From Chloroflexota bacterium (GTDB lineage Bacteria > Chloroflexota > Anaerolineae > Promineifilales > Promineifilaceae), in assembly GCA_018004935.1 (NCBI GenBank), contig JAGNBF010000001.1, forward strand, positions 124,001-188,000: DNA of 64,000 nt. Reading direction: 5' to 3'. Position 1 is the first letter of the stretch. Each line of letters starts with the position of its first letter. A program made the position numbers and the translations under genes. Positions 1-64,000 of the stretch are shown here, in pieces. Below the pieces are notes generated by a model that ran no database searches, had not been told where the DNA came from, and worked only from the letters and a program-made list of their open reading frames with translations.

Positions 1-396
1 CCTGCCCAGTGTGGGGCAACAACAAGGGTTGCCCGTACCCCATGTAATCCCGAAAACCCAAAACAAATAGATGAGGACTTACGCGCTGTGGCCGGTGTCC
101 CCACCGTGCCACCTAACTTATTTCCGAACGATTACTAAGATGTTTCAGAGGCCGTCTTTAATCCGTTCCTTTCTAAATGCGTTGAAGTAACCAAAACGGC
201 CTAAAATCGTCTCTGAACTGAACGGTGACCTGCCAACCCTTGTGGTTGCCCGCGACGAGCGGGTACAAGGCCAGCCCCTCCATGTAGCCACACCCCGCAA
301 ATTCCCAAAGAACCAAATTAAGTTTCATCGAGAGTGTCTTCTCAATAATGCGGGGTAGCCGTAGGTTGAGCTTGTCACAACCAACGGCCTGCGACC
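1..396. repeat. Gene-free repeat-rich left edge
   Basis: No credible gene lies here. Positions 1-58 are the right part of a family B element (core GGGCAAC..AAGGGTTGCCC), cut by the window edge. Positions 72-110 resemble the left arm of family E (AGGACTTACGCGCTGTG). Positions 122-141 match the tail of the family G unit (GATTACTAAG, also near 24043 and 24220). Positions 150-212 resemble 52575-52640 (both carry CCTTTCTAAAT and AAAACGGCCTAAAA). Positions about 215-300 look like a decayed, inverted family B copy. Confidence 0.6.
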
Positions 397-1068
397 TTAT
401 CGGTTCCCCGCCGCCTTTGCTTCTTTCCGGCGGGCGCGGGGGCCAACAATGCGTTCGGAGCCGTCGAGGAGCCGTTTGATATTGGGACGGAGCGCCCAGG
501 AAACAATTACCAGGGTAATCAAACCACCGACCAGATAGGCGGGGGTTGTATCCTTTTCGGTGGCGTAACGAATGGCAAACACCAGAGGGATAATTGCGCC
601 CATTGAGAGAGAAGCGATGGAGGCCATGCCGACCGTTACAATAATACCCACAACAGTCAACACCCCAATGGGGAACATTGGCCACCAGATAGCCGTAGCC
701 CAGCCAATATTGGGGCCAGTACCAGCGCCCCCTTTAAAGCCCAGAAAAATAGACCAGTTATGTCCCATGATGGTGCCAATGCCACAAAGCATTTCGGCCC
801 AGGGTAGTAGCTCAACATTGAGTACACGGCTGAACAGGAGACGAGCGATCCAAATCGCCGATGCCCCTTTCAAAACGTCACTCAAGCCGGTGAGTGCGCC
901 CACTACAGGCCCGGCGGCACGCATGGAGTTTGTACCCCCGGTGCGGCCGCTACCCACATCACGCAAGTCTATGCGTTTGACCAGGCGCACAAAAAGAAAC
1001 CCAAAAGGAATAGAGCCGAAAACATAGCCGATCAACCCGGCCAGGATGAAAATCAGTGTATTTGACAT
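397..1068 (-). CDS. plsY: Glycerol-3-phosphate acyltransferase PlsY
   Basis: PlsY is a membrane enzyme that transfers an acyl group from acyl-phosphate to the sn-1 position of glycerol 3-phosphate, the first step of bacterial phospholipid synthesis. The 223-residue product shows the family hallmarks: an N-terminal hydrophobic helix followed by GYVFGSIPFGFL, the GSGRTGGTNSMRAAG loop, a K-G dipeptide after the next helix, and the glycine-rich loop FKGGAGTG. Several hydrophobic helices follow, and the C-terminus is short and basic. Length is normal for the family. It is the leftmost gene on the minus strand and has no operon partner in view. The ATG follows a TAGGAT box by only six bases and no Shine-Dalgarno sequence is visible, so the message may be leaderless. 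The call is firm. Confidence 0.95.
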   Translation of the reverse strand: MSNTLIFILAGLIGYVFGSIPFGFLFVRLVKRIDLRDVGSGRTGGTNSMRAAGPVVGALTGLSDVLKGASAIWIARLLFSRVLNVELLPWAEMLCGIGTIMGHNWSIFLGFKGGAGTGPNIGWATAIWWPMFPIGVLTVVGIIVTVGMASIASLSMGAIIPLVFAIRYATEKDTTPAYLVGGLITLVIVSWALRPNIKRLLDGSERIVGPRARRKEAKAAGNR

Positions 1069-1074
1069 AAATGT

Positions 1075-1080
1075 ATCCTA
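1075..1080 (-). promoter_or_regulatory. -10 box six bases before plsY ATG
   Basis: On the minus strand TAGGAT is followed by ACATTT and the plsY ATG. Transcription starting about seven bases after the box would begin at or next to the A of ATG. No clear -35 hexamer is seen. Confidence 0.4.
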
Positions 1081-1233
1081 TCGCTTGTGTGGCTAAAGCG
1101 GCCTTTTTTGCCCTGTTGGGGGATGAAAAGGGGTTTAGCGGGCAAGGATTTGAGGGATTGTCACCGTGGGTATTGGGTCACGGCGTAGTGCCTGCTGGCA
1201 GTCAAAATATTTAACCCTATTTGCCTCGATCCG

Positions 1234-1665: not shown

Positions 1666-1683
1666 ATTCCTTATCTGGTGTTG

Positions 1684-1689
1684 ATTATA
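1684..1689 (-). promoter_or_regulatory. -10 box of the JAMM gene
   Basis: On the minus strand TATAAT occurs 18 bases before the ATG at 1665, giving a leader of roughly a dozen bases containing AAGGA. The -35 region is weak. Confidence 0.4.
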
Positions 1690-1734
1690 ACGAAACCTAG
1701 CCCCAGCGAAAATGACAAGATAGTAAGTACTCGT

Positions 1735-1905: not shown

Positions 1906-1920
1906 CTTTTCCCGAGTAAC

Positions 1921-1961: not shown

Positions 1962-1977
1962 CTGAATAAAAGTAACT

Positions 1978-2045: not shown

Positions 2046-2079
2046 AATCGTTACGAATAAAAGATGAATAAATTATCTG

Positions 2080-9344: not shown

Positions 9345-9660
9345 GAATGAGAACTAAATAACTTGTTCGCTAGGAGTGGCACGGTCAGGAGACCGGCCAC
9401 AGCAAATGTTCAAGTTATTTAATCGCCAATCCTTAGTAGCTACCAGTCGTATTAATTTATCCGTCAAGCGGGCCCGATTATAATTGAGATTGAACTAATT
9501 AATGCCGGTAATAGAGCTTCCTCCATCCCTAACCCCGCCCCTGGGGCGGGCATTGGATAAAGCGTCGTTTTTTGCGGGCGTACGCCCGCAAAAAACGACA
9601 CCAATAGGGTCCCCCATCCCCCGGGGGAATCGTTAGGGGGATGGGGGTTCTGATGAGCGA
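9345..9660. repeat. Repeats before gyrA: family D unit and palindrome cassette
   Basis: Family D occupies about 9375-9410. Positions 9520-9660 form a cassette: CCCTAACCCCGCCCC block, then a palindrome at 9564-9599 (17-bp arms GTCGTTTTTTGCGGGCG, 2-base centre), then CCCCCATCCCCC. No gene is seen between ppa and gyrA. Confidence 0.7.
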
Positions 9661-9730
9661 CATATCCAATTAACTTTGGAAAAGCTCTGATGCCTATAGC
9701 GTATAAGTCGTTTCATAGAGGAAAATAAGG

Positions 9731-9736
9731 TATAAT
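9731..9736 (+). promoter_or_regulatory. Candidate gyrA -10 box
   Basis: TATAAT preceded by AAGG, 160 bases upstream of the gyrA start. No good -35 hexamer is found 16-18 bases upstream, so this is tentative. Confidence 0.35.
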
Positions 9737-9895
9737 TTCTCTGTGTCTATCAGACATATTTTTGACGTAAGAAACCCTATCCCCAGGCAACAAACTGCCT
9801 GATTCCCCACCTGAAGTTTCCCCCTCATCCTGACTACTAACTTGACCGGGTGTCTCTTTGTGCAACAGGCTTTAGGTGTTTGTGTGGAGGCCATT

Positions 9896-12433
9896 TTGGA
9901 AATTGGTACGATTAATCAGGTTGATATTAATGAGCAAATGCGTAGTGCCTATCTGGATTACGCTATGAGCGTCATTGTCTCACGGGCCTTGCCGGATGCT
10001 CGTGATGGTTTAAAACCCGTTCACCGGCGTATTCTTTTTGCCATGCACGATATGGGGATTCGCCCGACTGGCCCTTTCCGCAAAAGTGCCCGTATCGTAG
10101 GTGAGGTTCTGGGTAAATATCATCCTCATGGTGATAGCTCCGTATATGATGCGATGGTGCGTATGGCGCAGAATTTTTCGATGCGTTATATGCTGGTGGA
10201 TGGTCAGGGAAACTTCGGTAGTATTGATGGTGACAGCGCGGCCGCGATGCGTTACACCGAAGCCCGTTTGGCCCGTATTGCGATGGAATTGCTGGAAGAT
10301 ATTGAGAAGAACACAATTGAATTTACCAGTAACTTCGATGACAGCCTTAAAGAGCCAACCGTTTTACCTGCTCGCCTGCCCAACCTGCTCCTTAACGGTT
10401 CAACCGGTATTGCCGTGGGCATGGCTACCAACATTCCTCCCCATAACCTGAGTGAATTGTGTGAAGCCATTGCTTACCTGATTGATCATTATGAGCAAAT
10501 GGATGATATTGCCCTGGAAGATTTGATGCGGTTTGTGAAAGGGCCAGACTTCCCCACCGGGGGCATCATTGTGGGGACGGAAGGGATAAAAAGTGCGTTG
10601 GCAACAGGCCGCGGCCGCATCATTGTGCGTGGTTTAGCAACAATTGAAGATATGCCCGGCAAACATGATCGGCAACGTATCAATATCACCGAACTCCCCT
10701 ATCAGGTCAATAAAGCCAACCTCATTGAGCGAATTGCCGAACTGGCTAACCAAGACATACTCCCCGACATCTCCGACCTGCGCGATGAAACCGGACGCCA
10801 GGGTTTATCCATCATCGTCGAGCTGAAGCGTAATACTCAGCCGATGAAGGTGCTGAATCAACTTTTTAAGCATACCCCTTTACAAACATCCTATAGCGTG
10901 CAGGTATTAGCGCTGGTGGATAAACAGCCGCGCCTGCTGGGGTTGAAGCGGGCTTTGCAGGTATATATCGATCACCGATTTGAGGTGATTACCCGGCGCA
11001 CGCAATTTGAACTGGATAAAGCTTTGCGTCGCCAGCATATTCTGGAAGGGTTACTCATTGCCCTATCCTACCTGGATGAGGTTATTGCTACCATTCGCCG
11101 CGCTTCTGATGTGGAAGAGGCACGCCATAACTTGATAACAGGGTTTGGCCTGTCGGAAGCGCAAGCGATTGCTATTTTGGATATGCAATTGCGCCGTTTG
11201 GCGGCGCTGGAACGGCAAAAGATCGAAGATGAACACAAGGAAATCTTGGTGCTGGCGGCTTATTTGCAGAGCCTTCTGGATGACCCAGAGAAAATTCGGG
11301 TTTTGATCAAAGCAGATGTATTGGAACTGAAGGAAAAATATGGTGATGCCCGCCGTACCCAAATTGCCCTGGATCAATCCGCTGACCTGAGTCTGGAAGA
11401 TTTGATTCAGGATGAAGAGATGTTGGTTTCTATTACTCGTCGTGGTTATGTTAAGCGTACCCCCATTTCGGCGTACCGGTTACAGGGGCGTGGCGGCCGC
11501 GGCCTCATTGGCATGGGGCGACGGGATGAGGATGAATTGGAACATCTCTTTGCCGCCGGAACATTGCACAACATTCTCTTTTTCTCTGACCGGGGCAAGG
11601 TATATGTAGAAAAAACCCATGTAATCCCGGAACTGGATCGCACTGCCCGGGGTACATCTCTGATGAACATTTTGCCCCTGCTTCCAGAGGAGCGGATTAC
11701 CGCCGCCCTGGTGGTAGATGATTTTGAGGCGGCCAAGTACCTGGTCATGGTGACGGAACGCGGCCGCATTAAACGTTGTGAAGTCAGTTCCTTCGCCAAT
11801 GTTCGTTCTACCGGTCTCATTGCCATCAGCCTGGATGAAGATGACAAACTCGGCTATGTGAAGATGACCAATGGGGGTCAGGATTTGATTCTGGTGAGTG
11901 AACAAGGCAAAGGGATTCGTTTTAGTGAGGAAGATGTGCGACCCATGGGGCGTGCGGCCGCGGGCGTTAATGCCATCCGCCTGGACACCTGGGATCACGT
12001 GGCCGGTTTTGATGTCGTCACCGTAGATGAAGATCTGCTCCTCCTTACCGAATATGGCTACGGTAAACGCACATCCCTGGATGAATATCGGACGCAGGGA
12101 CGTTTTGGTCAGGGGGTAAGGGCCATGCGTCTTCTTGATAAATCAGGCAAAATCGTGAGTGCCCGTGCCGTTTCGGATGAAGACGAATTAACCGTCATCT
12201 CTGTAAATGGGCTGGTTTTGCGTATACCCGTCAATACCATTTCGCGTCAGGGCCGAGATTCCCAAGGAGTGCGGGTAATGGACTTGAAAGATGATGATGC
12301 AGTGGCTTCAGTCGCCATTTTGCGAGAAGAGCGCCTGGCGCAGTTAAATGAACAAAATGGCGTTAGCCCCCGGCCGGTACCAGAGCAAATGATAGAGGCA
12401 AACGGTGCGGCCGCGAACGAATTAGACGAATAA
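9896..12433 (+). CDS. gyrA: DNA gyrase subunit A
   Basis: GyrA forms the cleavage-rejoining half of gyrase, the ATP-driven enzyme that introduces negative supercoils. The 845-residue product contains the classic opening [20 protein letters not shown], the catalytic tyrosine Tyr120 in AMRYTEARL, and the quinolone region [20 protein letters not shown]. That region has Ser81 and Asp85, equivalent to E. coli Ser83/Asp87, so it looks drug-sensitive. The C-terminal part is the six-bladed pinwheel, with a GyrA box reading QGRGGRG, close to the canonical QRRGGKG; this favours gyrase over topoisomerase IV. The start is the TTG at 9896, five bases after GGAGG; it gives the usual short lead before VDI. 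gyrB is not in view. A terminator follows. Confidence 0.95.
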
Positions 12434-12447
12434 ATAAACTGTGTGTT

Positions 12448-12487
12448 AAGAGACCGGGTTCCGTGCCAACGACTCGGTCTCTTTTTT
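12448..12487 (+). terminator. gyrA terminator
   Basis: AAGAGACCG pairs with CGGTCTCTT, followed by a T run, starting 15 bases after the gyrA stop. Confidence 0.85.
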
Positions 12488-12805
12488 AAGCCTCATTTTC
12501 CTATTGAGCATTACTGACATCAACCTATACTTACTGGGGTTTAGCGCCAGTCAAAACCAGAGAAGAAATAGCGTAACAATACAGGCGTAGCCCAGGCCAT
12601 ACCTGTACCGTTACCAATCAATTACATTTCCTCTCCCCACATGGCTAAACGCTAAACACAAGTTATTTAGGGCCAGTTACTATCACCGGTAACGATTCGC
12701 TATAGACCTTAAGATAATATTGTCGCGCCAGGAATTGTAACGCCAACGGCAACGCCAAAATTGTTATCTTGCCAGTCTAATTGCAGGCCATTGCAGGAGG
12801 AACCG
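12488..12805. other. Intergenic, no gene or recognised repeat
   Basis: About 320 bases between gyrA and the ATPase gene. I see no reading frame with codon character and no member of the repeat families. The only clear signal is GCAGGAGG at 12793-12800, the ribosome site of the next gene. Confidence 0.5.
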
Positions 12806-14146
12806 TTGTCTCCAGTATCTGATATTAAAGACCTGATCGCCATCCCTACTTCGGCAGAAGAACTGGGCATTCCTATCAGTCTCATCACCGATCTCGTTTA
12901 TCGTATGTTATTCAATGAAGGTGATGTTAGTGTTAGCCGTTTCACCGAAATTATTCGCATCCATCCCCAGGTTGTAGATGATATGTTAGCCCGGATGCAA
13001 CAAGAGCATTTAGTAGAAGTTGCCCGGACCGGCACATTAGGCCGTTTAAGTTACACCTATCGCCTCACTGAAGAAGGAGGTAAACGTGCCCGCGATGCCA
13101 TGGAAAAATCACTTTACGTAGGCGCGGCCCCGGTAGATGTTGAGGTATACAAAAAAGCCATTGTTGCCCAAACATCCTCTACCCTGAAAATCACCCCCAC
13201 CCAAGTCAAAAAAGCCCTGAGCCATCTCATCCTGCCCGAACGTTTTGATCGGCGTATTGGCCCGGCGGTGAATGCTGGTTCTTCCTTGTTCCTCTATGGA
13301 CCTCCCGGCAATGGCAAAACCACCGTCGCCGAAGCCATTGCCAAATTAATGTCCGGAGCCTCACCTATCTGGATTCCGTATGCTATCACCATCGGCGGAC
13401 AAATCATCCAAATTTTTGATCCCCTGATTCATAAGCCCGCAGGTGATCTGGCCTTCAAACAAGAAACAGCCAATCTTGGTAAATTGAAAACTGATAGACG
13501 ATGGGGATTGTTTGAACGACCGGCCGTTATGGTGGGGGGGGAGTTGCAAATGGAATCACTGGATTTACGGTATGAACCGTATGCCAAGTTCTATGAAGCA
13601 CCTCTGCAACTCAAGGCCAACGGAGGCATGTTCCTGATTGACGACTTTGGCCGACAGCAAATGAGTCCGCAACAACTCTTAAACCGTTGGATCGTGCCGC
13701 TAGAAAGCCGCATTGACTTCTTGCGTTTGCAGTCAGGCCAGACGATTGAAGCACCATTCCGCCAGCTTCTTGTGTTTTCTACTAATTTGGACCCGGAACA
13801 ACTGGTAGATGATGCTTTCCTGCGTCGTATTCAAATGAAGGTGGGTGTTTTCAGTCCAGATGAGAAAATGTTCTTCCAGATATTTAAGGTGATGAGCGAT
13901 TCCTTAAGAGTGCCACTGGATAAAAATGGCTTTTTATACCTCATCCAAAAATGGTATCGCGAGCCTGGGCGCACCATGCAAGCCGTCCACCCACGTGATA
14001 TTTTGAAAATCATCGTCTCTATTTGTACCTATGAAGGTGTGCCGCCAGTTCTCTCCCCAGAACTCATTGATGAAGCCTGTACCAGCTATTTTGTGGATAA
14101 AAAGGGTAAAGGTATGGGGGATTACAAAGCGATGACCAACATGTAG
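12806..14146 (+). CDS. AAA+ ATPase with N-terminal winged helix
   Basis: The 446-residue protein combines a DNA-binding-like winged helix (residues about 25-100; TEIIRIHPQVVDDML, then a YRLTEEG wing) with an AAA+ ATPase core. Walker A is GPPGNGKT near residue 170 and Walker B is MFLIDDFG. The sensor-1 region reads LLVFSTNLDP, and an arginine-finger-like DDAFLRRIQMKV follows. The C-terminal lid includes HPRDILKIIV. The start is the TTG six bases after GGAGG. It stands alone, with no obvious partner, so its client is unknown; the architecture would suit a remodelling ATPase whose winged helix senses DNA or protein. I cannot name a specific subfamily. Confidence 0.8.
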   Translation: MSPVSDIKDLIAIPTSAEELGIPISLITDLVYRMLFNEGDVSVSRFTEIIRIHPQVVDDMLARMQQEHLVEVARTGTLGRLSYTYRLTEEGGKRARDAMEKSLYVGAAPVDVEVYKKAIVAQTSSTLKITPTQVKKALSHLILPERFDRRIGPAVNAGSSLFLYGPPGNGKTTVAEAIAKLMSGASPIWIPYAITIGGQIIQIFDPLIHKPAGDLAFKQETANLGKLKTDRRWGLFERPAVMVGGELQMESLDLRYEPYAKFYEAPLQLKANGGMFLIDDFGRQQMSPQQLLNRWIVPLESRIDFLRLQSGQTIEAPFRQLLVFSTNLDPEQLVDDAFLRRIQMKVGVFSPDEKMFFQIFKVMSDSLRVPLDKNGFLYLIQKWYREPGRTMQAVHPRDILKIIVSICTYEGVPPVLSPELIDEACTSYFVDKKGKGMGDYKAMTNM

Positions 14147-14169: not shown

Positions 14170-14240
14170 TGGGGGTGGAGCGGGCCGGTCTCCTGATGGT
14201 GACCGCTGGTGGCTCGGTCAGGAGACCGGCCATAGTTCTG
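14170..14240. repeat. Family D repeat, tandem-inverted copy
   Basis: GGGCCGGTCTCCTGA and GGTCAGGAGACCGGCC lie in opposite orientation within 60 bases, forming a long imperfect hairpin. Confidence 0.65.
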
Positions 14241-14285
14241 AAATATGGAGAAGTTACGAGCGGGGATAAAATAAGAGGGGTTTTT

Positions 14286-14335
14286 ATGACAGACCCTAAA
14301 GGTTGCTGAAAACCTTTAGGGTCTGGTGTGTTTTT
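14286..14335. terminator. Bidirectional terminator
   Basis: GACCCTAAAGGTT-GCTGA-AAACCTTTAGGGTC forms a strong stem with T5 on the plus side and U-rich sequence on the minus side. It lies just past the stop of the minus-strand AIM24 gene and after the AAA+ gene, so it can serve both. Confidence 0.75.
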
Positions 14336-14346
14336 AGCGAGGTGTT

Positions 14347-15132
14347 TTATTGTTGGAGCAGGTTGGTCAGGCCACGAATAGCGGAGCCTTCGTCGGAGCC
14401 GCGGCCGCCAGCCGTGGGCGCATTTTGCAAAATGCGGTCTGCCAGGCGAGAGAAGGGCAAAGATTGTAACCACACTCGCCCTGTCCCTTGCAATGTAGCC
14501 AGGAATAACCCCTCACCCCCGAAAATCATGGATTTCAGGTTGCCAGAGCGCTGAATGTCGTAACCAATTTGCGATTCAAAGGCGACAATACAGCCGGTAT
14601 CCACCAAGATTTTTTCGTTATTGAGTTGCTTCTCAATGACAGTTCCCCCGGCATGAATAAAGACCATGCCATCACCGCGCAGTCGTTGCAAAATAAACCC
14701 TTCACCACCAAATAAACCAGCGCCCAGTTTCTTATTGAAGGCAATGCTGACTTCTGTTCCCAGAGCCGCACAGAGGAAGGAATCTTTCTGGCATAACATT
14801 TCCCCCTTCACTTGATCCAGATCGAGGGGAACGATTTTGCCGGGATAGGAAGCGGCAAAGGAGACATGTTTTTTGCTGGAACCTTTGTTGGTGAAATGGG
14901 TGATAAAGATAGACTCGCCTGTTAGAGCACGTTTACCGGCGCTAAACAGCTTGCCCATAAAACCTTGTTCGGGCTGGGAACCATCACCCATTTTGGTTTC
15001 AAATGCAATACCATCTTCCATGTACATCATTGTACCGGCCTCGGCAATGACGGTTTCACCGGGGTCTAGTTCTACTTCAACAAATTGCAGATCATCACCA
15101 TAAATCTTGTAATCTACGACATGACTTTTCAT
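14347..15132 (-). CDS. AIM24 family protein (TIGR00266-like)
   Basis: The 261-residue protein belongs to the AIM24/DUF124 family, a beta-rich fold common in bacteria and related to a mitochondrial inner-membrane factor; no biochemical activity is established. Diagnostic stretches are the opening [23 protein letters not shown], read here as two parts ([12 protein letters not shown] and [11 protein letters not shown]), the segment [19 protein letters not shown], and [14 protein letters not shown]. Near the end [20 protein letters not shown] repeats the motif. The C-terminal tail ([15 protein letters not shown]) is low complexity. An upstream CTCCTTT complement provides an AAAGGAG ribosome site. 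It is monocistronic here. Confidence 0.88.
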
Positions 15133-15919: not shown

Positions 15920-15920
15920 A

Positions 15921-20869: not shown

Positions 20870-21718
20870 TTATTGATAAGCCACAAGACCAGAGAACCCC
20901 ACGGCTTCGGCACCTACATGGGCACCGATGGCTGGGGCAATCAGAATGGGATCAATGTCGAGACAATCCTGAGGAATGAGATCCCGCACAGCCTGTTTGA
21001 GCGCGGCCGCGTCATTGGCCGCATGACTGTGGAGAATTACCAGCTTGTTAAAGGGAGCCAGTTCCCGAATCATCTGCTCAACCCGCACCAATGATTTTCC
21101 TCGTGTGCGCACCCGCTCCACCACTTCCACCTTGCCGTTTTGAATGCCAATAACCGGTTTGATCTGTAACAGAGTTCCCAGGCCAAATTGGGCCAGGCTA
21201 ACCCGCCCACTGCGGCGGAGTGAGTCCAGGGTATTGAGGGCGGCAAAGGTGCGAATATGAGGGTGCGCCGTTTGCAGTAATGCTAATATTTCGGGGACGG
21301 AGTGTCCGTTCGCGGCCGCGGCCGCGGCCAACCAGGCCAATAACCCCGTTCCCAAAGTCAATTGCCCCGAATCTACCACATGCACCGGAACCCGTGTGAA
21401 CGCCGAGGCTCCCAATTTAGCGGCCTGGTACACCAGGCTTAACGACGACGCGATATGTACCGAAATGATAGCGGTTGCCCCTTCATCGGCTAATTGTTCA
21501 TAGATGGCTGTAAACGCCGCTGGCGAGGGTGCGGCCGTCTTGGGGTGTTCTGGGTAACGGGACAGGTTTTGGTAAAACACCTGCCGATCCAACTCCACCC
21601 CATCCAGATACCCTTTGTCACCAATGTTGATATACACTGGCAAAATCGTGATGCCATATTGTTTTGCCACCGAGGGTGGCACATCTCCAGCACTGTCAAT
21701 TACCACTTTAATACTCAT
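20870..21718 (-). CDS. DegV family fatty-acid-binding protein
   Basis: DegV/FakB proteins bind a fatty acid; in Firmicutes they present it to the kinase FakA. The 282-residue protein has the expected start IKVVIDSAGDVP, LPVYINIGDKGYLDG, the lid motif TAAPSPAAF (usually TSxPS) and ISVHIASSLSLVYQAA. It ends with IGAHVGAEAVGFSGL, close to the family's HxGPGxxG-type closing loop but lacking that exact pattern. No fakA homologue is nearby, so its partner is unknown. It converges with the histidine kinase gene (12 bases between stops) and follows the VWA gene by 29 bases, possibly in one transcript. Confidence 0.9.
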   Translation of the reverse strand: MSIKVVIDSAGDVPPSVAKQYGITILPVYINIGDKGYLDGVELDRQVFYQNLSRYPEHPKTAAPSPAAFTAIYEQLADEGATAIISVHIASSLSLVYQAAKLGASAFTRVPVHVVDSGQLTLGTGLLAWLAAAAAANGHSVPEILALLQTAHPHIRTFAALNTLDSLRRSGRVSLAQFGLGTLLQIKPVIGIQNGKVEVVERVRTRGKSLVRVEQMIRELAPFNKLVILHSHAANDAAALKQAVRDLIPQDCLDIDPILIAPAIGAHVGAEAVGFSGLVAYQ

Positions 21719-38619: not shown

Positions 38620-41600
38620 ATGGAATTCATCAACACTTACATCCCCATTGATCGTCGTTATGCCCTGATACATAACCAACCTTTGCCGGATCGGGCACAG
38701 GGTGTGGTTTTATTTGCTGATATTTCGGGGTTTACGCCGTTGACGGCCGCTCTGGCGAAGGGGTTAGGCCCGTTCCGGGGCGCTGAAGAGATGACTCGTT
38801 ATCTTAACCAGGTGTATGGGGCCTTGATTGCTGAGGTGCATCGGTATCAGGGGAGTGTGATTGGTTTTAGTGGGGATGCGGTTACTTGCTGGTTTGATGA
38901 ACATGAGGAATTCGGTGCGGTGAAAGTTGCGGAGGATCGTTTTGCGGTCCCGTATGCTTTTCAACGGGCGGCGCGGCGTGCGGCCGCGGCCGCACTGGCT
39001 ATGCAAGCCGCCATCCAACAAATGGGAGCGATCACCACACCGCAAGGCACAGCCGTGACTTTGGGCATCAAGGTGGCGCTGGCGGGGGGTACGGTGCGCC
39101 GGTTTTTGGCTGGGCGGCCAGATATTCAGGTGATTGAGGTGTTGGCGGGCAACATTTTGGACCGCATGGCGCTGGCCGAAAATCAGGCGGAACGTGGGGA
39201 AACGGTTGTGGCGGCAGAGATCGCGGCCGCATTGTCGGATAGTGCCATTATCAAAACCTGGCGACTTTCCCCAGAAGGGCAACGTTTTGCTGTCATTACT
39301 GGGTTGACTCAACCCATTGCCATGTCCCCCTGGCCTGCCTTGCCCCCCTTGTCTAATGAGCAGGCGCGTCCCTGGTTGTTATCTCCGGTTTATCAAAAAT
39401 TACAACGGGGTGAAGCGGCTTATCTGGCCGAATTACGCCAGGTGGTTTCCTTGTTCCTTAAATTCAGCGGGATTGATTATGAAGCGGATGATGCCGCCGG
39501 TGATAAACTCAACGAATACATTAGTTGGGTGCAAACCGTTTTGTCCCGGTATGGGGGATTTCTTTTGCAATTGACGATGGGTGACAAGGGGAGTTACCTG
39601 TATGGGGTGTTTGGGGCGTTGCAGGCTCATGAAGATGATGCGTTACGGGCGGTCGCGGCCGCAATCGAACTCAACACACCCCCAGCCCCTCTCAGCTTCA
39701 TCAGTCAGACGCACATTGGTCTTAGCCGGGGGCAGGCTTACACTGGGGGTTATGGGGGACCAACCCGCCAGACCTATGGGGTGATGAGCAATCAGGTCAA
39801 TATCGCCGCCCGCCTCATGGCCAAAGCCCACCCAGGGCAAATATTGGTTACGGCCTTCATCATGCAGGCTACCATTCAGGAATATGAGTATGAGGAATTA
39901 GGGGCTGTCCCTCTAAAAGGGTTAACCAGTCCCCTGTTGGTGTTTACGGTTTTGGGAAAGCGGTTTAAGAATGAAGCGGATACGCTGAAGGGGCGTGCCC
40001 TGGCCCCTATGGTGGGGCGGGAAGAGCAACGGGCTGTTTTGCTGGAAGGGTTAAGGGCTTTGCAGGAACAAGGGCAAAGTGGTTGCATTGTCATTGAGGG
40101 GGAAGCCGGTATTGGCAAGTCTCGCCTGGTAGTAGAACTATTGGATCAGGCGCACGCCAATGGTATTAGCAGTTTGTTAGGAGCAGGGGATGCGATTGAG
40201 AACGCGGCCGCGTACCATGCCTGGCGGCCCTTATTCCGGCAATTCTTTCATCTGGATGTCCCGCATCAGGAGATGGACATCGCCCCTATTGAAGAATGGC
40301 AGGCCATTGTGTTAGAGCAACTGACCAACCTACCCCCCCCTCTTGTCAACCTCATCCCTCTGCTCAATGTGGTTTTACCCCTGGACTTGCCCGAAAATGA
40401 TCTGACATCTCAACTTACGGGTGAGGTGCGAGCCAACAATACTCTGGAACTCCTTATTGGCCTGATTCAGACCCGCGTCCAAACAAAACCCTTGATCATC
40501 GTTCTGGACGATACCCAATGGTTTGACTCTGCTTCTTGGGGGCTGGCCCGATTGGTTAGCCGTGACATTCAGCCCTTACTGTTAGTCTTATTAACGCGGC
40601 CGCTGGATAGCCCCTTGCCCACTGACTATACTGCCCTGTTGGAATTATCCACCACCCACCACCTGCGCCTCGAGACGCTGAGTACCCAACAGATTGAAAG
40701 CCTGGTGTGCCAACGCTTAGAGGTGAAACAGTTACCGGCTCGTGTGGCCAAGCTTATTCATGAAAAAGCCGCCGGACATCCTTTTTTCAGTGAAGAACTG
40801 GCGTATGCCTTACGGGATGCAGGCCTGATTCAAATCGTTAGTGGCGAATGTCTGGTGACACCCCAGGCGGGTGCCCTCCGAGGGATGGACTTCCCCAATA
40901 CCATTCAAGGCGTCATTACCAGCCGTATTGACCGCCTCAGCCCCCAGCACCAGCTAACGCTTAAAGTCGCCAGCGTCATTGGCCGCACGTTCTGGCTCAA
41001 TGCATTGAATTATATTTACCCCCTGGAAGTAGATAAACCCACGCTACCCCATTATTTGCATGATCTGGAAAAAGCATCTATCACGGCGGCGGTAGTCGGT
41101 GATCCTGACCTATCGTACATTTTTAAACACGTCATTACCCAGGAAGTGGCTTATGGGCTGTTGTTATATGCCCAACGCCAATCTCTGCACCAGGGGGTGG
41201 CGGAGTGGTATGAACGTGCTTATGACAAAGATTTGTCTGGATCTTACCCCCTGTTGGCCTATCACTGGCGCAATGCCGGGAATTCCGGCAAAACAGTAGA
41301 GTATTTAGAAAAGGCGGCGGAGGAAGCATTACGAAATAATACCAACCAGGAAGCCATTCGTTTTCTGAACGAAGCCCTTACCCTGTACACCGAGATTGAA
41401 GTCCAACCGGATCAGTTGCGGGTAGCCCGGTGGCATCGGCAGTTGGGTGAGGCCCACATGGGGCTGGGTCTTATGCTGGATGGGCAGAGATATTATGAGC
41501 AGGCGTTGGCTCTGACGGGTTTCCCGGTGCCGCAAAAACCAGCCCAAACTGCCACCCGTATTTTGGGGCAAATTGCGCGACAGGTGGGGCATCGCCTGCG

Positions 41601-42813: not shown

Positions 42814-44564
42814 ATGTCAGGGCAGGAAAATGATCCAATAAAAGTTACCAAATCTGTATCCACGCCAGGTACATCGCTTAGACCGTAAGTTGTCCCGTTC
42901 AGATAAAGTTCAAAACTCCCTGCTGTGGCCTGCCCGGTAGATGTGGGTACAAAACGGACAATATCCGAATCATCCACACCTTCCAGATCCCCCAGTTTTT
43001 CCACCGGTTCATCTAGGCTCAACAGGATGGAACCGTCAGCCAACAGGGTGAACGCATCTACATTGATCCCCAATAGACCCACATCTGAACCATCAAAATA
43101 CATATCCCAGATGCCATTCAGAGCATCGTAAATCACAATGTCCTCTTTACTATAATAGGTGTCATCAATGATTACATCGCTGGTCCAGGAGAAGTAGAGT
43201 ATTTCGGCGGGAAGTTGGTACGTTTGAGCGGGTACCAACTTGATGGCATCGGCCAGGACGATACGACCTTCGTTAGCACCATCTTCAAAAGCACCATCAT
43301 CGTTATCTACTTGCACATATTCAGTAATGTTACCATCCAGGGCAAAATCATAGCGGCCGATGTAGGCCCAGGCGGAATGCTCGTTATTGGGATAAACGAG
43401 TTGCACAACATGGGCTATGCTGGTTTCTTCGTTATGCTCGATCGTATAGATAGCGTTTAAGGTTGCATCTTCGTGATCGGGGATATGGACGTAAATGTCG
43501 TATTCACCGGGGGGAGCATAGGCATCTGGTTCGATATTCCATTGGGCACAACATCCTTCCTTTGCATTGACATAGGTATAACGATAGGAGTTATTATAGC
43601 TTTGTGAACCGGTATCATCCTCAAAACAATCTCCCTCTATTGAAAAATCAGATGAGGTGTCGTCAATCAACAGGCTGATTTCGTCTACTTCTGGTTCTGG
43701 CAAACCAACATCACCTGCACCCGGATATTGGTCGGCTCCCGAAATAAGGGCTGGTCGGGTTGCCCATAGGTTGTAACTAATTTCTCCTGATGGATGTCCC
43801 GCCCAAGGATCTGGTGTTGTTGTTCCAATCCAACCATAAGGATTCACAACAACGTCTGCTAAGGTACGAACTTCGAGATGAAGATGTTGTCCACAAGTTG
43901 ATGTCTCTGGTTGCCCTGTAATTGGGCCGCATCCCAGGCCACCAATACCAAAAACGTGCCCGGTATTTCCACTAATCCCGATGATTCTATTTCTATCTCC
44001 AGGATTTTCCGGGTCAATTGTTATGGTTTGACCTGTTTCGGCAACTAAGGCACTTAGGTGTCCATACCAGATTTCATAATTTTCATTGGCTGTGTAAGTC
44101 ATACGCACATGTAATCCATAACCCAGCCGATGATTGGCGGGATAGGACCACCCTGCTTCGATAACTTCGCCATTGGCGGCCGCAAGAACTGGTTCATACT
44201 CCAGGCTATAATCTATTCCTAGATGGCTTGTGTATCCATACCCACCGGGAATATAAGCCGCCGTTGGACCGGGCGTAGGGGTTGTACCTGCAAGTGGAGT
44301 AAGGGTTATGGGGGTATGGATAGTTCCGTCGTGGTGGACAACATAGTTGTTGTTATCACTGGAGCCAGGGAACGGATGATCAAAAACTTGCCAAACGTCT
44401 TCCTGACCGTAGTAAATGGAACCCAGAAAAGGTTGCGGTGTCTCAGTTTGTAATAGAGGGGCACTGGCATAAAGAGCCAGAGCATTGAATTGCATAGTAG
44501 CCGCCAAAATGAACAACCCAATTAACTGTATGGCTAATATTGACACCAGAAGTGACTTTCTCAT
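42738..44564 (-). CDS. Secreted M23-type peptidoglycan endopeptidase with C-terminal beta domains
   Basis: The 608-residue protein has a signal peptide (MRKSLLVSILAIQLIGLFIL). A LytM/M23 domain follows: SHLGIDYSLEYEPVLAAANG gives the first His and the Asp ligand, YGHLSALV the loop, and CGQHLHLEV the final His-x-His. This class cuts peptide cross-links in the cell wall. Residues about 310-470 resemble golvesin/xylan-lyase-like carbohydrate-binding domains (CAQWNIEPDAYAPPGEYDIY, ADAIKLVP). The last 130 residues repeat DVGLLGINVDAFTLLADG, then end in an unrelated-looking tail. The tail overlaps the cyclase gene on the other strand by 76 bases, suggesting the last domain is truncated. The ATG after AAGGTG was chosen; the longer frame has no ribosome site. 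Confidence 0.85.
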   Translation of the reverse strand: MRKSLLVSILAIQLIGLFILAATMQFNALALYASAPLLQTETPQPFLGSIYYGQEDVWQVFDHPFPGSSDNNNYVVHHDGTIHTPITLTPLAGTTPTPGPTAAYIPGGYGYTSHLGIDYSLEYEPVLAAANGEVIEAGWSYPANHRLGYGLHVRMTYTANENYEIWYGHLSALVAETGQTITIDPENPGDRNRIIGISGNTGHVFGIGGLGCGPITGQPETSTCGQHLHLEVRTLADVVVNPYGWIGTTTPDPWAGHPSGEISYNLWATRPALISGADQYPGAGDVGLPEPEVDEISLLIDDTSSDFSIEGDCFEDDTGSQSYNNSYRYTYVNAKEGCCAQWNIEPDAYAPPGEYDIYVHIPDHEDATLNAIYTIEHNEETSIAHVVQLVYPNNEHSAWAYIGRYDFALDGNITEYVQVDNDDGAFEDGANEGRIVLADAIKLVPAQTYQLPAEILYFSWTSDVIIDDTYYSKEDIVIYDALNGIWDMYFDGSDVGLLGINVDAFTLLADGSILLSLDEPVEKLGDLEGVDDSDIVRFVPTSTGQATAGSFELYLNGTTYGLSDVPGVDTDLVTFIGSFSCPDIYIGAFLSSCTNDSSYPFFKRVKMS

Positions 44565-44586
44565 ATTTTCACCTTTATGTAAACAT

Positions 44587-45965
44587 TTAATTGGATAACC
44601 AAAAAATGCCATAGGGTACGTATGTGTCAGTAGTATCAAGCAATTGAAAGACTTGCCCTCCTGTCCGATGAATAAGACTCAAACTAGAACCATTACTGTC
44701 TTTACTATGAAACACCAGCCATTGCCCATCAGGAGACCAAGCCAGAGGGCGCAACTCAGCACTCCCAGGTATATCTAGCAAGATTGTCGGTGTGTTATTT
44801 GTTATATCTAGCACCATCAACTGACCATGTTCTTCATGCAAAAATCCGAGTACTATGTTTTGACCATCTGGTAACCATAATGCGTAAAGATTAGAATAAG
44901 CTTCTGTGAGGGGATGACTCTCTCCACTTTCAGTATCCCATAAAGTCAAAGACGAGGACAAAGGTAATCCTATACCAACCCTGAACCCTTCGGTAAACGC
45001 CAGATAAGGACTATTCGGTGACCAGAGAGGCACACTAAAAAATCAGCCCCAACAAGATTTATTGTGCTTAATGAGGCCATATCAAGCGCATATAACCCAA
45101 CCCCAATATATTCATTTGAGACTAAATATTGGCTATCAGGTGACCAAGTTAAGTTCGATGCCTGCTTCTCAATATCCAACATGGTTATTGAAGAAGTTAT
45201 GGTATCCAGTAAATAAATCTCACCCCCATAAATACCTATTGCCAAATAGTTACCATTTGGTGACCAAGCGAGTTCTTGTACTTCACCAGGAAAAGAGTGT
45301 AGCAATTCCGGTGACCCTGTGATGGGGTGAGTGGCAACGTATACATCCGTACCGCTTTGATAAGCCAGCCGTTGACTATCATTTGACCAGGTTAGATTAC
45401 GTGCCCAGGGGTAATTATCTGTAATTCGCTCAAGTTCGTTGTTAGTCAGGGAATAAACGAAAACGTTAGGAATATCAAGATAGTGAGCCGCTCCTTGGAA
45501 ACTGACACTGCCATCACCGTTCGCATCTTCTAGCGCGGTGAAGGCCAGCTTTGTCTTATCGGGCGAAAGGGCAATAACAGGAATGCCTACCAAGCTCGTT
45601 AATACTGCTTCAACACGCCAATCGTCTGGTGTTTCACCTGGCACTGCCATATACAAATTATGAACGGGATCGGGCAAATCATCGGGGCGGGAAAGCGGGT
45701 CCCACATAAAGTAGATACGACCGGTGGGGGGAGAAATCGGTTCAGGTGTTTGTGTAGGTTCTGGTGTATGAGTCGGTGTTATTGTCGCAGTTGCCGCTAT
45801 CGTTGTCGGTGTGTCAGGGTTCACCGGTTCGGTGGTAGGAGTTAAGCTAGGCGTTGCCGAAAGTGTCAGGGTTGTTCCCTGGGCTATAGGCGTAGAAGTA
45901 GTAGATTCGCCCGTTGTGCAAGCACCCAGAAACAGGCAAAGCAGGAGCCAAAACCATTGTTTCAT
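44587..45965 (-). pseudogene. TolB-like (PD40) propeller lipoprotein with a frameshift
   Basis: Two overlapping frames belong to one gene. The upstream frame (44970-45965) begins with a lipoprotein signal (WLLLCLFLGAC), a Thr/Pro spacer and PD40-type blades (LTWSNDSQRLAYQS, LAWSPNGNYLAIG, LTWSPDSQYLVSN). It derails after NLVGADF. The downstream frame (44587-45033) resumes with PLWSPNSPYLAF and LAWSPDGQWLVFH. One additional T in the message T6 run (A6 at 45037-45042) would join them as GADFFSVPLWSPN. The whole would be about 460 residues. It could be a real mutation, a sequencing error in a homopolymer, or slippage-controlled expression. It sits among an M23 peptidase and another propeller gene, so a role in envelope biology is likely but unproven. 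Confidence 0.75.
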
Positions 45966-46031
45966 AACGCACCTCAGTTATTACTTTGACTTCTTTCTGT
46001 TTTAAAGCAGGGCAAAGAAAAAAGAAGCAAC

Positions 46032-47329
46032 TCATTCTTGATCGCTGACAAGCCAGGCCGGATAACGGACAATACCGGGATACGTCACCGGTTGGGCCGT
46101 TTGACCGGGCGTAAGAAGCCAGATGGCATCATCGGCGGTAAAGGCCAGTTGCTTCCCATCTGGCGACCAGATCGGATCGTAAACCAGATTGCCCGTAAAT
46201 TGGGTCAGGGGCGTGATGGTGCCGGTGGCAATATCAGCCCGGTACAGATTGCTTTGCAAGGCGTTCGGCCACTCATCCGCCTTGACATCATCAGGGTTTT
46301 CGCGGTGGACGTAGGTAATGGTTTGCCCATCAGGATGCCAGACCGGGGGATACCCATGCCCGGCATCGGCTGGAGCTAACAAGGTCAACGGTTGGCCGCT
46401 GGTATCAGCCAGCCATAACTCACCGACGGTGTAGGGAATGTTGCTATCGGGCATGAGGATGTAGGCCATCTGTTGGCCGTCAGGCGACCAACGGGGGTAG
46501 GCAATGATATGCCGAGGTTGCTGTTGTAGGACGGTGCGTTCTCCATTGACCAGATTGAGCAGTCCCATTTCACTGCCAAAGCCAAGCCCTCGACTGGCAA
46601 CGTAAATCACCTGTTGACCATCAGGAGTAAAAGTAGCGTCATACGTCCCGAAAGGCAAGTCGAGCAGGGTTTGGTAGAGCGTCGCGGCTTCCACAAGGTA
46701 AATCTGGTGGTTATCGGCGTTACGGAAAAGGAACCAACCGCCATCGGGTGACCAGTTCAGGAAATAGCCGCGAGGAAACGTTACCGTAGCGGCGTTGGGT
46801 GGGGTTGTGGGGACAAGACGGGCGAAGTAATCCGCGTGGCAAAAGGTTTGCAAGATCAGGTATTGGCTGTTGGGTGACATGATCACCTGATCGACAATAC
46901 AGGTGGGGGAATGGCTTTGTAGATTGAGGGTAAGTGGCTGGTTGGTTGTTACCAAACTGGTTAAGGGATCGAAGGGTAGGGCAATGGTAGTCGTTTGGGC
47001 TCTTTGGGTATTTAGGGGGTTGACACCATATGTACGGGCTGGCCTTGTGCCTGCCCAGTGTGGGGCAACCACAAGGGTTGCCCGTACCCCACGAAATCCC
47101 GAAGACCCGTCGTTTGTTCAGCCAGAGAAAGTGCCGGGCCATTGGTGACGTTGGCGGGATAGTTAACAAAAACGAGATGTGTCGGCGGCCGCGCCATAGG
47201 CGCGGCCGCACCTGGTTGTATTTTAGGATACTGAGCTTTACCGGTCGGGGTGGGCAGCTTGCTGAAGAGGATAACGGCAGTACATAAAGCGATAAGCACG
47301 TTAAGCAGGAATAAGTACCGGTTTTTCAT
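46032..47329 (-). pseudogene. TolB-like (PD40) propeller gene split by a family B element
   Basis: The start (from 47329) encodes MKNRYLFLLNVLIALC, a signal anchor, then a Pro/Ala-rich spacer ending ALSLAEQTT. The body (to 46032) encodes blades such as FLNWSPDGGWFLF, YPRWSPDGQQMAYI and DPIWSPDGKQLAFTADD. Between them lies a 111-bp element flanked by GTCGTTTG repeats. Removing the element and one repeat restores a continuous frame, ALSLAEQTTTIALPFDPL. The net 119-base gain shifts the frame, so the intact product (about 390 residues) is not made. An ATG inside the element opens the downstream frame, but that product would lack a signal. Confidence 0.85.
46998..47108. mobile_element. Family B element, 111 bp, inside a gene
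   Basis: Target duplication GTCGTTTG at 46990-46997 and 47109-47116. Ends are GGCTCTTTGGGTATTTAG and, as complement of the right end, GGGTCTTCGGGATTTCGT. The core is the GGGCAACCACAAGGGTTGCC hairpin. Confidence 0.92.
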
Positions 47330-63001: not shown

Positions 63002-63011
63002 AAGGAGTGGA

Positions 63012-64000
63012 TCAATGCACTGGTTTTGACGATCCAGGCCGTTTGCTGATGTATTGCTTAAAGGCCAGCAATGTTTCAATCGTTGCGGCGCGAATCGTCC
63101 AGTTCTGTAAGGTAGGCACATCGGTTGTTTGTCCGACCAGAGCCACAATTTCTTCCGCAACAGAACCAAAACGATCCTCTAAGATCGCCAACAAAGTTTC
63201 CTGTGCCATCTGGCGCATACCTTGTTGCATGCCCTGTTGCATGCCTTGTTGCATGCCTTGTTGCATGCCTTGTTGCATACCTTTTTCTATCGCCATTTGT
63301 TCGATACTGGTCACATAACGCATGTTGACCTCCGTTTCTATTGCCTCTAAACGATGTTGAAACTGTTGCTTTAATTCTACAGGTAAATCCATCAGCCAAT
63401 CAATGAAGCGGAACAGTTCCAATATGTCTTTTTTGCGATAACCCCGTTTGTACAAAAGGCGGCAGAGAGTGAGTTTGGCGTCGAGCCGGGCCAGGGGATT
63501 ATGGCGGGTGGCCTGAGTCTGCAAATGAGCCAGGGCAACGATGGCGAATGGGTTGTTGTTGGTTTCCAGATTGGCCCAATCGCGCCCGTAGTCGAGTAAT
63601 TTGGTGATGGGAAAGCGCAGACTGACTTCACAACCGAGCGTTTCGTAACGGAACTGTTGCGGCCGCCAAGTAGGGCTATCATCGGTCAAAACGGCAAAAC
63701 TGGCAACCGGATGGCCGTATTTGTCGTAGATGCGGTAGTTGTAGATGTACATACGCCGGGCAAAATCAGCCTCGGGTTCGTTTTGCACCTCGATGTGAAT
63801 GAGAATCCAGATTTCGCCGCCGGTGAGCAGGTAAACACGCACCAGTTTGTCTACACGGCGCGACCCCGTCTCGGCATCACGGACGACCTGTTGAAGCTCT
63901 TTGTCGAGAAAGGTGTAACCCCGTGACCAATCAATTTGCTGAAAGGCGGACGAGAAGAAAAAGGCCATGAACTCTGGGAAGTATAGTTCGATGGCTTCCT
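63012..64000 (-). CDS. Rpn-like PD-(D/E)XK nuclease family protein, 5' end outside the window
   Basis: The frame is open to the right edge: codons for EAIELYFPEFMAFFF precede the first internal Met, so the true start lies beyond 64000. Visible text includes FLDKELQQVVRDAETGSRRV, KLVRVYLLTGGEIWILIHIEVQNEPE (read as WILIHIEVQNEPE; the Glu-x-Gln at the nuclease core) and FARRMYIYNYRIYDKYGHPV. This matches the Chloroflexota/cyanobacterial group of Rpn-like putative transposases. The C-terminal part contains KGMQQGMQQGMQQGMQQGM, a 12-bp tandem repeat at 63222-63281. pcrA follows 11 bases later. It is the second such gene in the window and again precedes a housekeeping gene very closely. Confidence 0.8.
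   Translation of the reverse strand, partial: EAIELYFPEFMAFFFSSAFQQIDWSRGYTFLDKELQQVVRDAETGSRRVDKLVRVYLLTGGEIWILIHIEVQNEPEADFARRMYIYNYRIYDKYGHPVASFAVLTDDSPTWRPQQFRYETLGCEVSLRFPITKLLDYGRDWANLETNNNPFAIVALAHLQTQATRHNPLARLDAKLTLCRLLYKRGYRKKDILELFRFIDWLMDLPVELKQQFQHRLEAIETEVNMRYVTSIEQMAIEKGMQQGMQQGMQQGMQQGMQQGMRQMAQETLLAILEDRFGSVAEEIVALVGQTTDVPTLQNWTIRAATIETLLAFKQYISKRPGSSKPVH
63222..63281 (-). repeat. 12-bp tandem coding repeat (GMQQ)
   Basis: Five near-identical units TTGCATGCCTTG on the plus strand, encoding Met-Gln-Gln-Gly. Likely to vary in number among strains. Confidence 0.85.

What the first reader, a model, noticed from the sequence alone, without database searches (positions are those of the whole stretch)
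1..64000. GCGGCCGC is a highly iterated palindrome in this genome
I counted about 85 copies of the octamer GCGGCCGC in 64 kb by hand, one every 750 bases; about one is expected at random. Examples: 943, 1296, 1379, 5340, 5640, 8278, 8383, 10238, 11493, 17644, 18283, 21312/21318 (overlapping), 38980/38986 (overlapping), 55811, 55841. Nearly all lie in genes; only a few fall in the roughly one-fifth of the window that is non-coding. All reading phases are used (Ala-Ala-Ala, Gly-Arg, Arg-Pro), so protein selection does not explain it. Cyanobacteria have the analogous HIP1 palindrome, GCGATCGC. A different sequence in a different phylum suggests an independent system, perhaps a methylation, repair or segregation mark.
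Basis: partly seen in the sequence, partly recalled or inferred. Interest (0 to 1): 0.88.

Follow-up and report, generated by a model that had tools for sequence, protein, structure and literature searches.

The report
NotI octamer repeated 12,000 times genome-wide
An uncultured Chloroflexota bacterium carries the eight-letter palindrome GCGGCCGC about every 660 bases across its genome, and its relatives carry the same core with other outer letters, which looks like a counterpart of the cyanobacterial HIP1 system, probably tied to a DNA methyltransferase of the NotI restriction lineage.

Summary
The window holds 85 GCGGCCGC; the 7.98 Mb genome holds 12,040, against 2 of the reversed control CGCCGGCG. 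Synonymous-codon shuffles give 70 where 690 are seen.

It is a highly iterated palindrome (HIP) outside cyanobacteria, with dialects. In the family that holds Promineifilum (Chloroflexota), 26 sampled genomes iterate ACGGCCGT, two TCGGCCGA, and of those classified only this one GCGGCCGC; six enrich bare CGGCCG. In same-genus pairs 84% of ACGGCCGT sites are kept against 31% of matched octamers.

The best candidate writer is a 676-aa DNA methyltransferase: 27 of 29 octamer genomes have it, 0 of 6 bare-core genomes. Elsewhere its orthologues often sit beside a NotI-family restriction enzyme, without HIPs. Here a NotI-like gene plus methyltransferase, of foreign composition, lies in the family's locus behind a fragment of a second copy.

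Methylation, its target and the maintaining force are inferred. Against a simple link: orthologues elsewhere lack HIPs, and two HIP genomes lack the gene. Whether the cassette caused the switch to GCGGCCGC is open.

The parts
1..64000 (.). 85 GCGGCCGC sites (8 bases each) starting at 943, 1296, 1379, 1626, 2769, 3315, 5031, 5340, 5640, 6504, 6686, 7259, 7484, 7855, 8278, 8383, 8592, 8786, 10238, 10611, 11493, 11760, 11954, 12407, 14401, 15717, 16210, 16669, 17098, 17644, 18283, 18574, 19634, 19915, 21003, 21312, 21318, 22338, 24669, 26078, 26948, 27252, 29514, 29795, 30369, 32909, 32975, 33416, 34280, 35966, 36524, 37324, 38980, 38986, 39223, 39655, 40204, 40596, 41598, 42316, 42631, 44176, 47185, 47202, 49352, 49858, 49955, 50260, 51691, 53077, 53679, 53968, 54772, 55132, 55150, 55602, 55811, 55841, 56922, 57907, 59897, 60505, 61446, 62292, 63659
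21312..21325 (.). two overlapping sites (GCGGCCGCGGCCGC)
38980..38993 (.). two overlapping sites
44184..47184 (.). largest site-free stretch of the window (3.0 kb between successive sites)
1..64000 (.). Not in the window, same genome: the candidate enzymes lie on contig G000:C49 (locus L174, same coordinates): methyltransferase 10794-12824 (-), NotI-like endonuclease 12860-13663 (-), fragment of a second methyltransferase copy 13755-13988 (-), NurA-domain nuclease 9575-10780 (-)

Best explanation
GCGGCCGC is this genome's dialect of a HIP system in the family that holds Promineifilum. Proposed working: (1) a methyltransferase of the NotI restriction lineage, in most of the family a solitary enzyme, reads an 8-base site N-CGGCCG-N' and methylates a cytosine in it (inferred; the octamer GCGGCCGC has no A or T to methylate otherwise); (2) the resulting hemimethylated sites behind the replication fork are used as strand or position marks by a DNA process, most likely strand choice in mismatch repair, perhaps recombination, so that a density of roughly 1.3 to 1.7 sites per kb is selected and sites are kept (density and retention shown, cause inferred); (3) when the enzyme or its specificity changes, the outer bases of the iterated octamer follow, giving the A, T and G dialects (dialects shown, causation inferred). 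In this genome the locus now carries a NotI-like endonuclease with its methyltransferase, so the genome would be densely self-targeted and dependent on its methylase if the pair reads GCGGCCGC.
For: Over-representation is genome-wide and not due to composition or protein. The core CGGCCG is constant while the outer base pair changes by lineage: ACGGCCGT in 26, TCGGCCGA in 2, GCGGCCGC in 1 of 52 family genomes (7 of 52 had too little or no sequence sampled and 3 only 3.3 to 4.5 kb). Density is alike in all dialects: 1.51 per kb here, 1.67 in the pooled A-type and 1.26 in the pooled T-type samples. Same-genus comparisons: 520 of 617 ACGGCCGT occurrences kept, 490 of 1576 matched octamers; in the distant pair G040/G044 20 of 29 against 4 of 90. 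The methyltransferase is in 27 of 29 octamer genomes and 0 of 6 bare-core genomes. Its NotI-side relatives recognise an 8-base site by name (Pfam PF12183), and in 35 of 67 orthologue loci a NotI-like gene is found in the locus, which makes them a likely restriction-modification pair. C5 methyltransferases (PF00145) cannot be the general writer: 12 of 29 octamer genomes have no match. Elhai 2015 (PMC4390886, sections read) reports a matching methyltransferase for every cyanobacterial HIP.
Against: The methyltransferase is not sufficient: 14 of 14 sampled genomes of other families with an orthologue show no octamer HIP (CGGCCG O/E 0.4 to 2.2). It is not strictly necessary: G012 (95% complete) and G002 (78%) iterate ACGGCCGT without a match. 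Four genomes of genus g4 have it with only weak, unflanked CGGCCG enrichment. The 0-of-6 contrast rests on two lineages (five genomes of one genus, and G016), so it is few independent events. The specificity of the enzyme is not known from any call, and its motif DPPY is more usual for adenine methylation; M.CbeI is a read precedent for DPPY with N4-cytosine (PMC3425538, passages). The cassette here is of foreign composition, so it may be younger than the 12,040 sites. Site-by-site inheritance between this genome and A-type relatives is not above background: 6 of 43 sites against 12.5%.
Confidence: 0.5

Rival explanations
1. Neutral mutational ratchet: methylation or repair at the core biases mutations towards the octamer and the sites have no use (the by-product reading of Elhai's G-meC-dependent mismatch-repair model).
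For: Elhai 2015 sections 3.4 and 3.5 show how biased repair could raise HIPs with no selection. In A-type genomes, near misses at the outer base are enriched (A1>G 196 against 53, A1>T 177 against 32), like the first/last-base bias he reports.
Against: His ratchet needs a G before the methylated C; here the outer base is A, T or G over the same core. In this genome near misses at the outer base are at background (26, 24, 24 against 22, 32, 22). Similar densities in all dialects look like a set point, though his ratchet also predicts a saturation density.
Confidence: 0.25
2. DNA uptake or recombination signal (like DUS/USS or Chi), spread by biased transformation or exchange, with species dialects.
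For: Density, conservation and dialects resemble uptake sequences (recalled knowledge; Elhai 2015 section 1, read, lists Chi and uptake signals as the other two classes of iterated oligomers). In G001 the methyltransferase gene is followed by NurA and HerA DNA-end-processing genes.
Against: Chi and the well-known uptake sequences are not palindromic (recalled). No uptake receptor was sought. Fit with the methyltransferase distribution would be a coincidence.
Confidence: 0.1
3. The NotI-like cassette of this genome is a late arrival that settled because GCGGCCGC sites were already protected by a resident enzyme of that specificity; it did not cause the dialect.
For: Cassette GC 0.40 to 0.43 against 0.54 for the rest of the locus, and 1 site in 2.87 kb where about 4 are expected; in 7 of 7 solitary-type genes compared (G001, G017, G024, G031, G036, G040, G044) gene GC is within 0.04 of its locus. 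The fragment beside it has GC 0.56 and a GCGGCCGC site.
Against: G000 is the only octamer genome with this NotI-like subtype: NotI-like hits in 9 other family genomes are weak (29 to 38% identity), and it is the only G-type; the coincidence would need explaining.
Confidence: 0.45
4. Compositional or protein artefact (GC-rich octamer, alanine runs).
For: Phase 0, Ala-Ala-Ala, holds 422 of 690 sites.
Against: Synonymous shuffles give a tenth of the count; matched palindromes are rare or absent; sites also lie outside ORFs (0.91 per kb).
Confidence: 0.01

Closest known systems
Cyanobacterial HIP1 (GCGATCGC) and alternate HIPs (Elhai 2015, PMC4390886; sections 2, 3, 7, 12, 18 and 19 and passages read)
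   Same: GC-rich palindrome, commonest octamer of the genome, density within his 500 to 2500 per million, lineage-specific variants of one core (he lists GCGATCGC and TCGATCGA), candidate cognate methyltransferase.
   Different: Core CGGCCG instead of CGATCG; phylum Chloroflexota; GCGATCGC occurs 0 times in 464 kb here; outer base A in most of the family; enzyme candidate of the NotI restriction lineage. His text holds neither GCGGCCGC nor CGGCCG.
NotI restriction-modification (Pfam PF12183; PDB 3bvq, 3c25)
   Same: The 267-aa neighbour matches PF12183 (E 5.5e-11), its family profile hits only NotI in the PDB (E 1.4e-6), and its predicted fold has NotI as its four best matches; NotI's own site, by recall, is GCGGCCGC.
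   Different: Restriction sites are usually avoided in the host genome; here the octamer is iterated 12,040 times. Identity to NotI is low (15 to 17% in the fold alignment), and a single-sequence search found nothing.
Orphan methyltransferases with over-represented targets in Halobacteria (PMC6471742, abstract and one table passage seen)
   Same: GATC is over-represented in most haloarchaeal genomes, more so with the cognate orphan enzyme.
   Different: A 4-base site and, by the passages seen, no iterated octamer; the table lists CGGCCG as the top predicted site of a dcm-type group, relevant only to the bare-core genomes here.
Dam/MutH/SeqA of E. coli (recalled)
   Same: Would be the model of how hemimethylated, regularly occurring sites serve mismatch repair.
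   Different: No MutH or SeqA analogue was sought; the site is 8 bases long and C-methylated if methylated at all.

Membership tests
HIP (highly iterated palindrome) | Palindrome that is the most over-represented octamer, at about 0.5 to 2.5 per kb | tested here: met
   commonest 8-mer of the window, 1.51 per kb genome-wide, O/E 58 at order 1
HIP (highly iterated palindrome) | Not explained by protein content, present in and outside genes | tested here: met
   690 against 70 after synonymous shuffling; 1.72 per kb in ORFs, 0.91 outside
HIP (highly iterated palindrome) | Cognate methyltransferase in the same genomes | tested here: inconclusive
   candidate in 27 of 29 octamer and 0 of 6 bare-core genomes, but also in 14 of 14 sampled HIP-less genomes of other families chosen for having it; specificity unknown
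HIP (highly iterated palindrome) | One-base deviants concentrated at first and last base (Elhai's observation for HIP1) | tested here: inconclusive
   seen in pooled A-type genomes, not in this genome; T-type numbers small
HIP1 proper | Sequence GCGATCGC | tested here: not met
   0 in 464 kb
NotI-family restriction endonuclease (neighbour of the candidate methyltransferase) | PF12183 profile and NotI fold | tested here: met
   against: no hit by single-sequence phmmer
NotI-family restriction endonuclease (neighbour of the candidate methyltransferase) | Cleaves GCGGCCGC | not testable with these tools
   needs protein
N4/N6 DNA methyltransferase (PF01555) | Profile match with SAM motif and catalytic DPPY | tested here: met
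   (E 4.7e-16, two stretches); T494 D495 P496 P497 Y498 invariant in 22 sequences; fold search gave only weak matches to SAM methyltransferases, none at E 0.001 or better
N4/N6 DNA methyltransferase (PF01555) | Methylates cytosine in GCGGCCGC | not testable with these tools
   needs methylome or protein
Chi / KOPS / uptake sequence | Non-palindromic, polar signal (recalled) | tested here: not met
   same count on both strands because the site is a perfect palindrome
Very-short-patch repair signature | C-to-T near misses of the methylated site depleted | tested here: inconclusive
   C2>T enriched 2.0-fold, G3>A (C6>T) depleted to 0.23; in A-type genomes 1.15 and 1.39

The most novel reading that the evidence does not exclude
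A restriction-modification methyltransferase of the NotI lineage was domesticated in one bacterial family into a genome-wide marking system: its 8-base recognition site was driven up to one copy per 600 to 800 bases and is now held by strong constraint. Changing the enzyme's specificity rewrites thousands of sites (A, T and G dialects over one core). In this genome a NotI-like endonuclease has returned beside the methylase, making it the most densely self-targeted restriction system that I know of, an addiction of the whole chromosome to one methylase.
Probability: 0.35. Interest if true: 0.92.

Novelty: new variant of a known kind. Interest (0 to 1): 0.82.

Why it matters
HIP1 has been a puzzle since 1995 and, in the papers seen here, is treated as cyanobacterial. 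A second phylum with its own core and with dialects that differ only in the outer bases gives a natural experiment: it separates models in which the outer base follows from a G-meC rule from models in which it follows from the methyltransferase's recognition site. It also offers a possible case of a restriction enzyme's methylase turned into a genome-wide mark. Papers on a HIP in Chloroflexota or on iterated GCGGCCGC or CGGCCG were not found in searches of the held open-access library, which lacks most subscription journals.

Tried and rejected
L012-type methyltransferase (PF01555, contig C67) as the family writer: rejected, strong orthologues (60% identity or more) in only 4 other family genomes (G014, G028, G041, G049).

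C5 methyltransferases (PF00145): rejected as the general writer, no match in 28 of 52 family genomes, 12 of them octamer genomes. A group of four (G016, G037, G046, G023; 65 to 76% identical) falls in three bare-core genomes and one weakly enriched one and is a lead for CGGCCG; G005 has no PF00145 match, G043 only fragments, and of G025's six hits only two were fetched, neither in the group, so it is inconclusive.

D12 (Dam-like) enzyme: 42 of 52 family genomes have some match; it resembles E. coli Dam by recall, so GATC is the likely site; G006 (none) and G049 (E 2.7e-4 only) iterate ACGGCCGT without a clear one. Rejected as writer.

NotI-like nuclease as a general MutH-like enzyme: rejected for the family, 10 of 52 genomes have any hit, most weak.

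In-place switching of outer bases: a first count, 29 of 85 comparisons with the core in place against 5 of 501 at shifted positions, and the larger one were inflated by repeated genes, above all the methyltransferase itself, fetched from many genomes. With each site counted once and that gene left out it is 6 of 43 against 131 of 1049 background 6-mers; gene-matched resampling reaches it in 729 of 2000 runs. Five of the six read ACGGCCGT in a relative, too few to build on.

The NotI-present/HIP-absent contrast (of 67 loci 3 NotI+HIP+, 32 NotI+HIP-, 18 NotI-HIP+, 14 NotI-HIP-; Fisher 4e-5) used cut-offs set, overlaps with the family genomes and is confounded by descent; one of the three NotI+HIP+ (L300) shows no octamer. 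Read as a tendency.

The tree is a quick one; the grouping of the two T-type enzymes (support 82) is flagged there as long branches meeting.

One search failed (file name) and was rerun; loci L214 to L225 were labelled G000 by default, mended from then on.
Full report
WHAT IS THERE. The window holds exactly 85 GCGGCCGC, all 17 positions tested from the finding are right, and the whole genome, 7,977,649 bases in 229 contigs, holds 12,040, one per 663 bases, against 2 of the reversed control CGCCGGCG. In a 464-kb sample the site is 58-fold over an order-1 and 6.9-fold over an order-4 Markov expectation; at orders 5 and 6 the ratio falls to 2.2 and 1.04, because the contained 6- and 7-mers hardly occur outside the site. 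Of 16 all-G/C palindromic octamers in 484 kb it has 764 copies, the next 73, the rest at most 9 each. Shuffling synonymous codons leaves 70 of 690. Sites are twice as dense in ORFs as outside, nearly randomly spaced, with a slight lack of gaps under 100 bases (84 against 111).

DIALECTS. No other genome of the same genus was among those searched. In the same family (52 genomes with this one), stretches were taken of most: 26 iterate ACGGCCGT, two (G007, G031) TCGGCCGA, this one GCGGCCGC; six (G005, G016, G025, G037, G043, G046) enrich CGGCCG 6.6- to 13-fold with no strong outer base (G043 on 3.3 kb only); four of genus g4 (G003, G023, G035, G041) enrich it 2.5- to 3.6-fold without outer preference; G009 (2.0) and G027 (1.4) show little; G011 avoids CGGCCG (1 against 15) and has TGCCGGCA instead (20 against 1.2). 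G004, G020 and G030 had under 5 kb, and seven genomes too little or nothing. Octamer density is alike: 1.51 per kb here over the whole genome, 1.67 in pooled A-type and 1.26 in pooled T-type samples; the samples are biased towards methyltransferase loci. Preference reaches one base further out: C (1029) or T (403) of 1624 here, T or A in 306 of 318 for the T type, A in 1194 of 2682 for the A type. GCGGCCGC counted in 118 whole genomes of family, order and class shows nothing like this genome elsewhere. Same-genus comparisons show strong constraint: 520 of 617 ACGGCCGT occurrences are kept against 490 of 1576 octamers of the same A/T-outside, G/C-inside make-up; between G040 and G044 (mean 72% amino-acid identity) 20 of 29 against 4 of 90 (21 genome pairs, both directions counted, genes shared between pairs).

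NAME. NCBI places Promineifilum in Chloroflexota, Promineifilales, Promineifilaceae.

CANDIDATE ENZYME. Three Pfam families of DNA methyltransferase were searched. PF00145 has no match in 28 of 52 family genomes, among them 12 of 29 octamer genomes. PF02086 (Dam-like) is widespread but not universal. Weak PF01555 hits led to a protein of about 676 aa, with orthologues of about 47 to 64% identity. It is found at E 1e-20 or better in 40 of 52 family genomes: 27 of 29 octamer genomes (missing in G002 and G012), 4 of 4 of g4, 0 of 6 bare-core genomes (Fisher 1.7e-5, but only two independent lineages lack it). In G007 it is split over two frames and in G024 it has one stop; some others are in pieces. 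It has an invariant DPPY and a SAM motif. A predicted structure is confident (pLDDT 83) but resembles solved methyltransferases only weakly.

NOTI LINK. In this genome the gene is followed upstream, 36 bases away, by a 267-aa protein that matches PF12183, restriction endonuclease NotI (E 5.5e-11). The profile of 20 relatives hits only NotI in the PDB (E 1.4e-6), and its model (pLDDT 89) has NotI as its four best fold matches, though single-sequence search found nothing. Across phyla, 35 of 67 orthologue loci hold such a NotI-like gene, so the two are probably a restriction-modification pair. Of these 35 loci, 32 show no CGGCCG enrichment by my cut-offs; 18 of 32 loci without it do. Of the three with both, two are the family members G028 and G029. 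In the class sample, 14 of 14 other-family genomes with an orthologue and sequence at hand lack the HIP. So the gene is older and wider than the HIP; what is special to the family is that the enzyme is mostly solitary and the octamer iterated. The same table shows HIP1 GCGATCGC as top octamer in two cyanobacterial loci (L372, L375), a check that the counting finds known HIPs.

THE LOCUS HERE. Reading along the minus strand of contig C49: an N-terminal fragment of a second methyltransferase copy (77 aa, 68% identical to the full copy over 71 aa, a little closer to G128, G032, G001 and G022), the NotI-like gene, the full methyltransferase, a NurA nuclease, a 224-aa protein. NurA follows the orthologue also in G001, G007, G013 and G031, the 224-aa protein in G001, G007 and G031, and HerA in G001; G036 has other neighbours. 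NotI-like and methyltransferase have GC 0.40 and 0.43, the fragment and the two downstream genes 0.56 to 0.57, and the 2.87-kb pair has one GCGGCCGC where about 4 are expected. This looks like a NotI-type cassette that replaced the resident gene. Either it brought the GCGGCCGC dialect, or it could settle because the dialect was already there and protected. Its unadapted composition favours the second slightly; the uniqueness of both cassette and dialect in the family favours the first. I leave it open.

MECHANISM. Shown: iteration, dialects, conservation, distribution of the gene. Inferred: that the enzyme methylates cytosine in the octamer (M.CbeI, with DPPY and N4-cytosine methylation of GGCC, is a precedent; passages of PMC3425538), and that hemimethylated sites guide a DNA process. 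I think strand choice in mismatch repair most likely, as Elhai proposed for cyanobacteria (PMC4390886, sections read). His specific rule, that the outer base must be G so that G-meC arises, does not fit outer A and T over the same core here; an 8-base recognition site fits better. Near misses: in A-type genomes the outer base shows a halo (A1>G 196 against 53, A1>T 177 against 32), in this genome none.

NOVELTY. Searches of the held papers list nothing on HIPs outside cyanobacteria or on iterated CGGCCG octamers; listings only, apart from PMC4390886, PMC3425538 and PMC6471742, of which I saw sections or passages (for the last: orphan methylases and over-represented GATC in Halobacteria). I file it as a new variant of a known kind.

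Noticed in passing
G000, 464-kb sample (window and L019-L038): Most other GC-rich 6-base palindromes are strongly avoided: GCCGGC 1 against 292, GGGCCC 4 against 336, CTGCAG 2 against 96, CAGCTG 5 against 130 (order-2 expectation).
   Followed up: no
L206, L064, L139 (genome G011): CGGCCG is avoided (1 against 15) and TGCCGGCA iterated (20 against 1.2) in 22 kb, perhaps another HIP dialect or core in the same family; G011 is 62% complete.
   Followed up: no
L057 (genome G083) and L342: GCCGGC is strongly enriched (134 against 25 in 20 kb; 117 against 29 in 22 kb), a possible further iterated palindrome in the class.
   Followed up: no
L001:393-2604 (G000 contig C180): A second, diverged NotI-like protein (421 aa, 28% over 109 aa, E 8e-5) lies next to a C5 methyltransferase: another probable restriction-modification pair in this genome.
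   Followed up: partly
L175, L176, L177, L178, L180, L269: The solitary methyltransferase gene of six A-type genomes holds 5 to 8 ACGGCCGT in about 2 kb, denser than the pooled average of 1.67 per kb; perhaps self-regulation.
   Followed up: no
G000, pooled sample: The base 5' of GCGGCCGC is C or T in 1432 of 1624, and of TCGGCCGA T or A in 306 of 318: preference beyond the octamer.
   Followed up: partly
L006 and relatives: A Dam-like D12 methyltransferase is widespread in the family (some D12 match in 42 of 52) but has no match in G005, G037, G043 and G046, all bare-core genomes.
   Followed up: partly
L174:14153-14593: Intergenic stretch upstream of the cassette with a directly repeated segment (two identical 53-aa frames, 14191-14352 and 14368-14529).
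   Followed up: no
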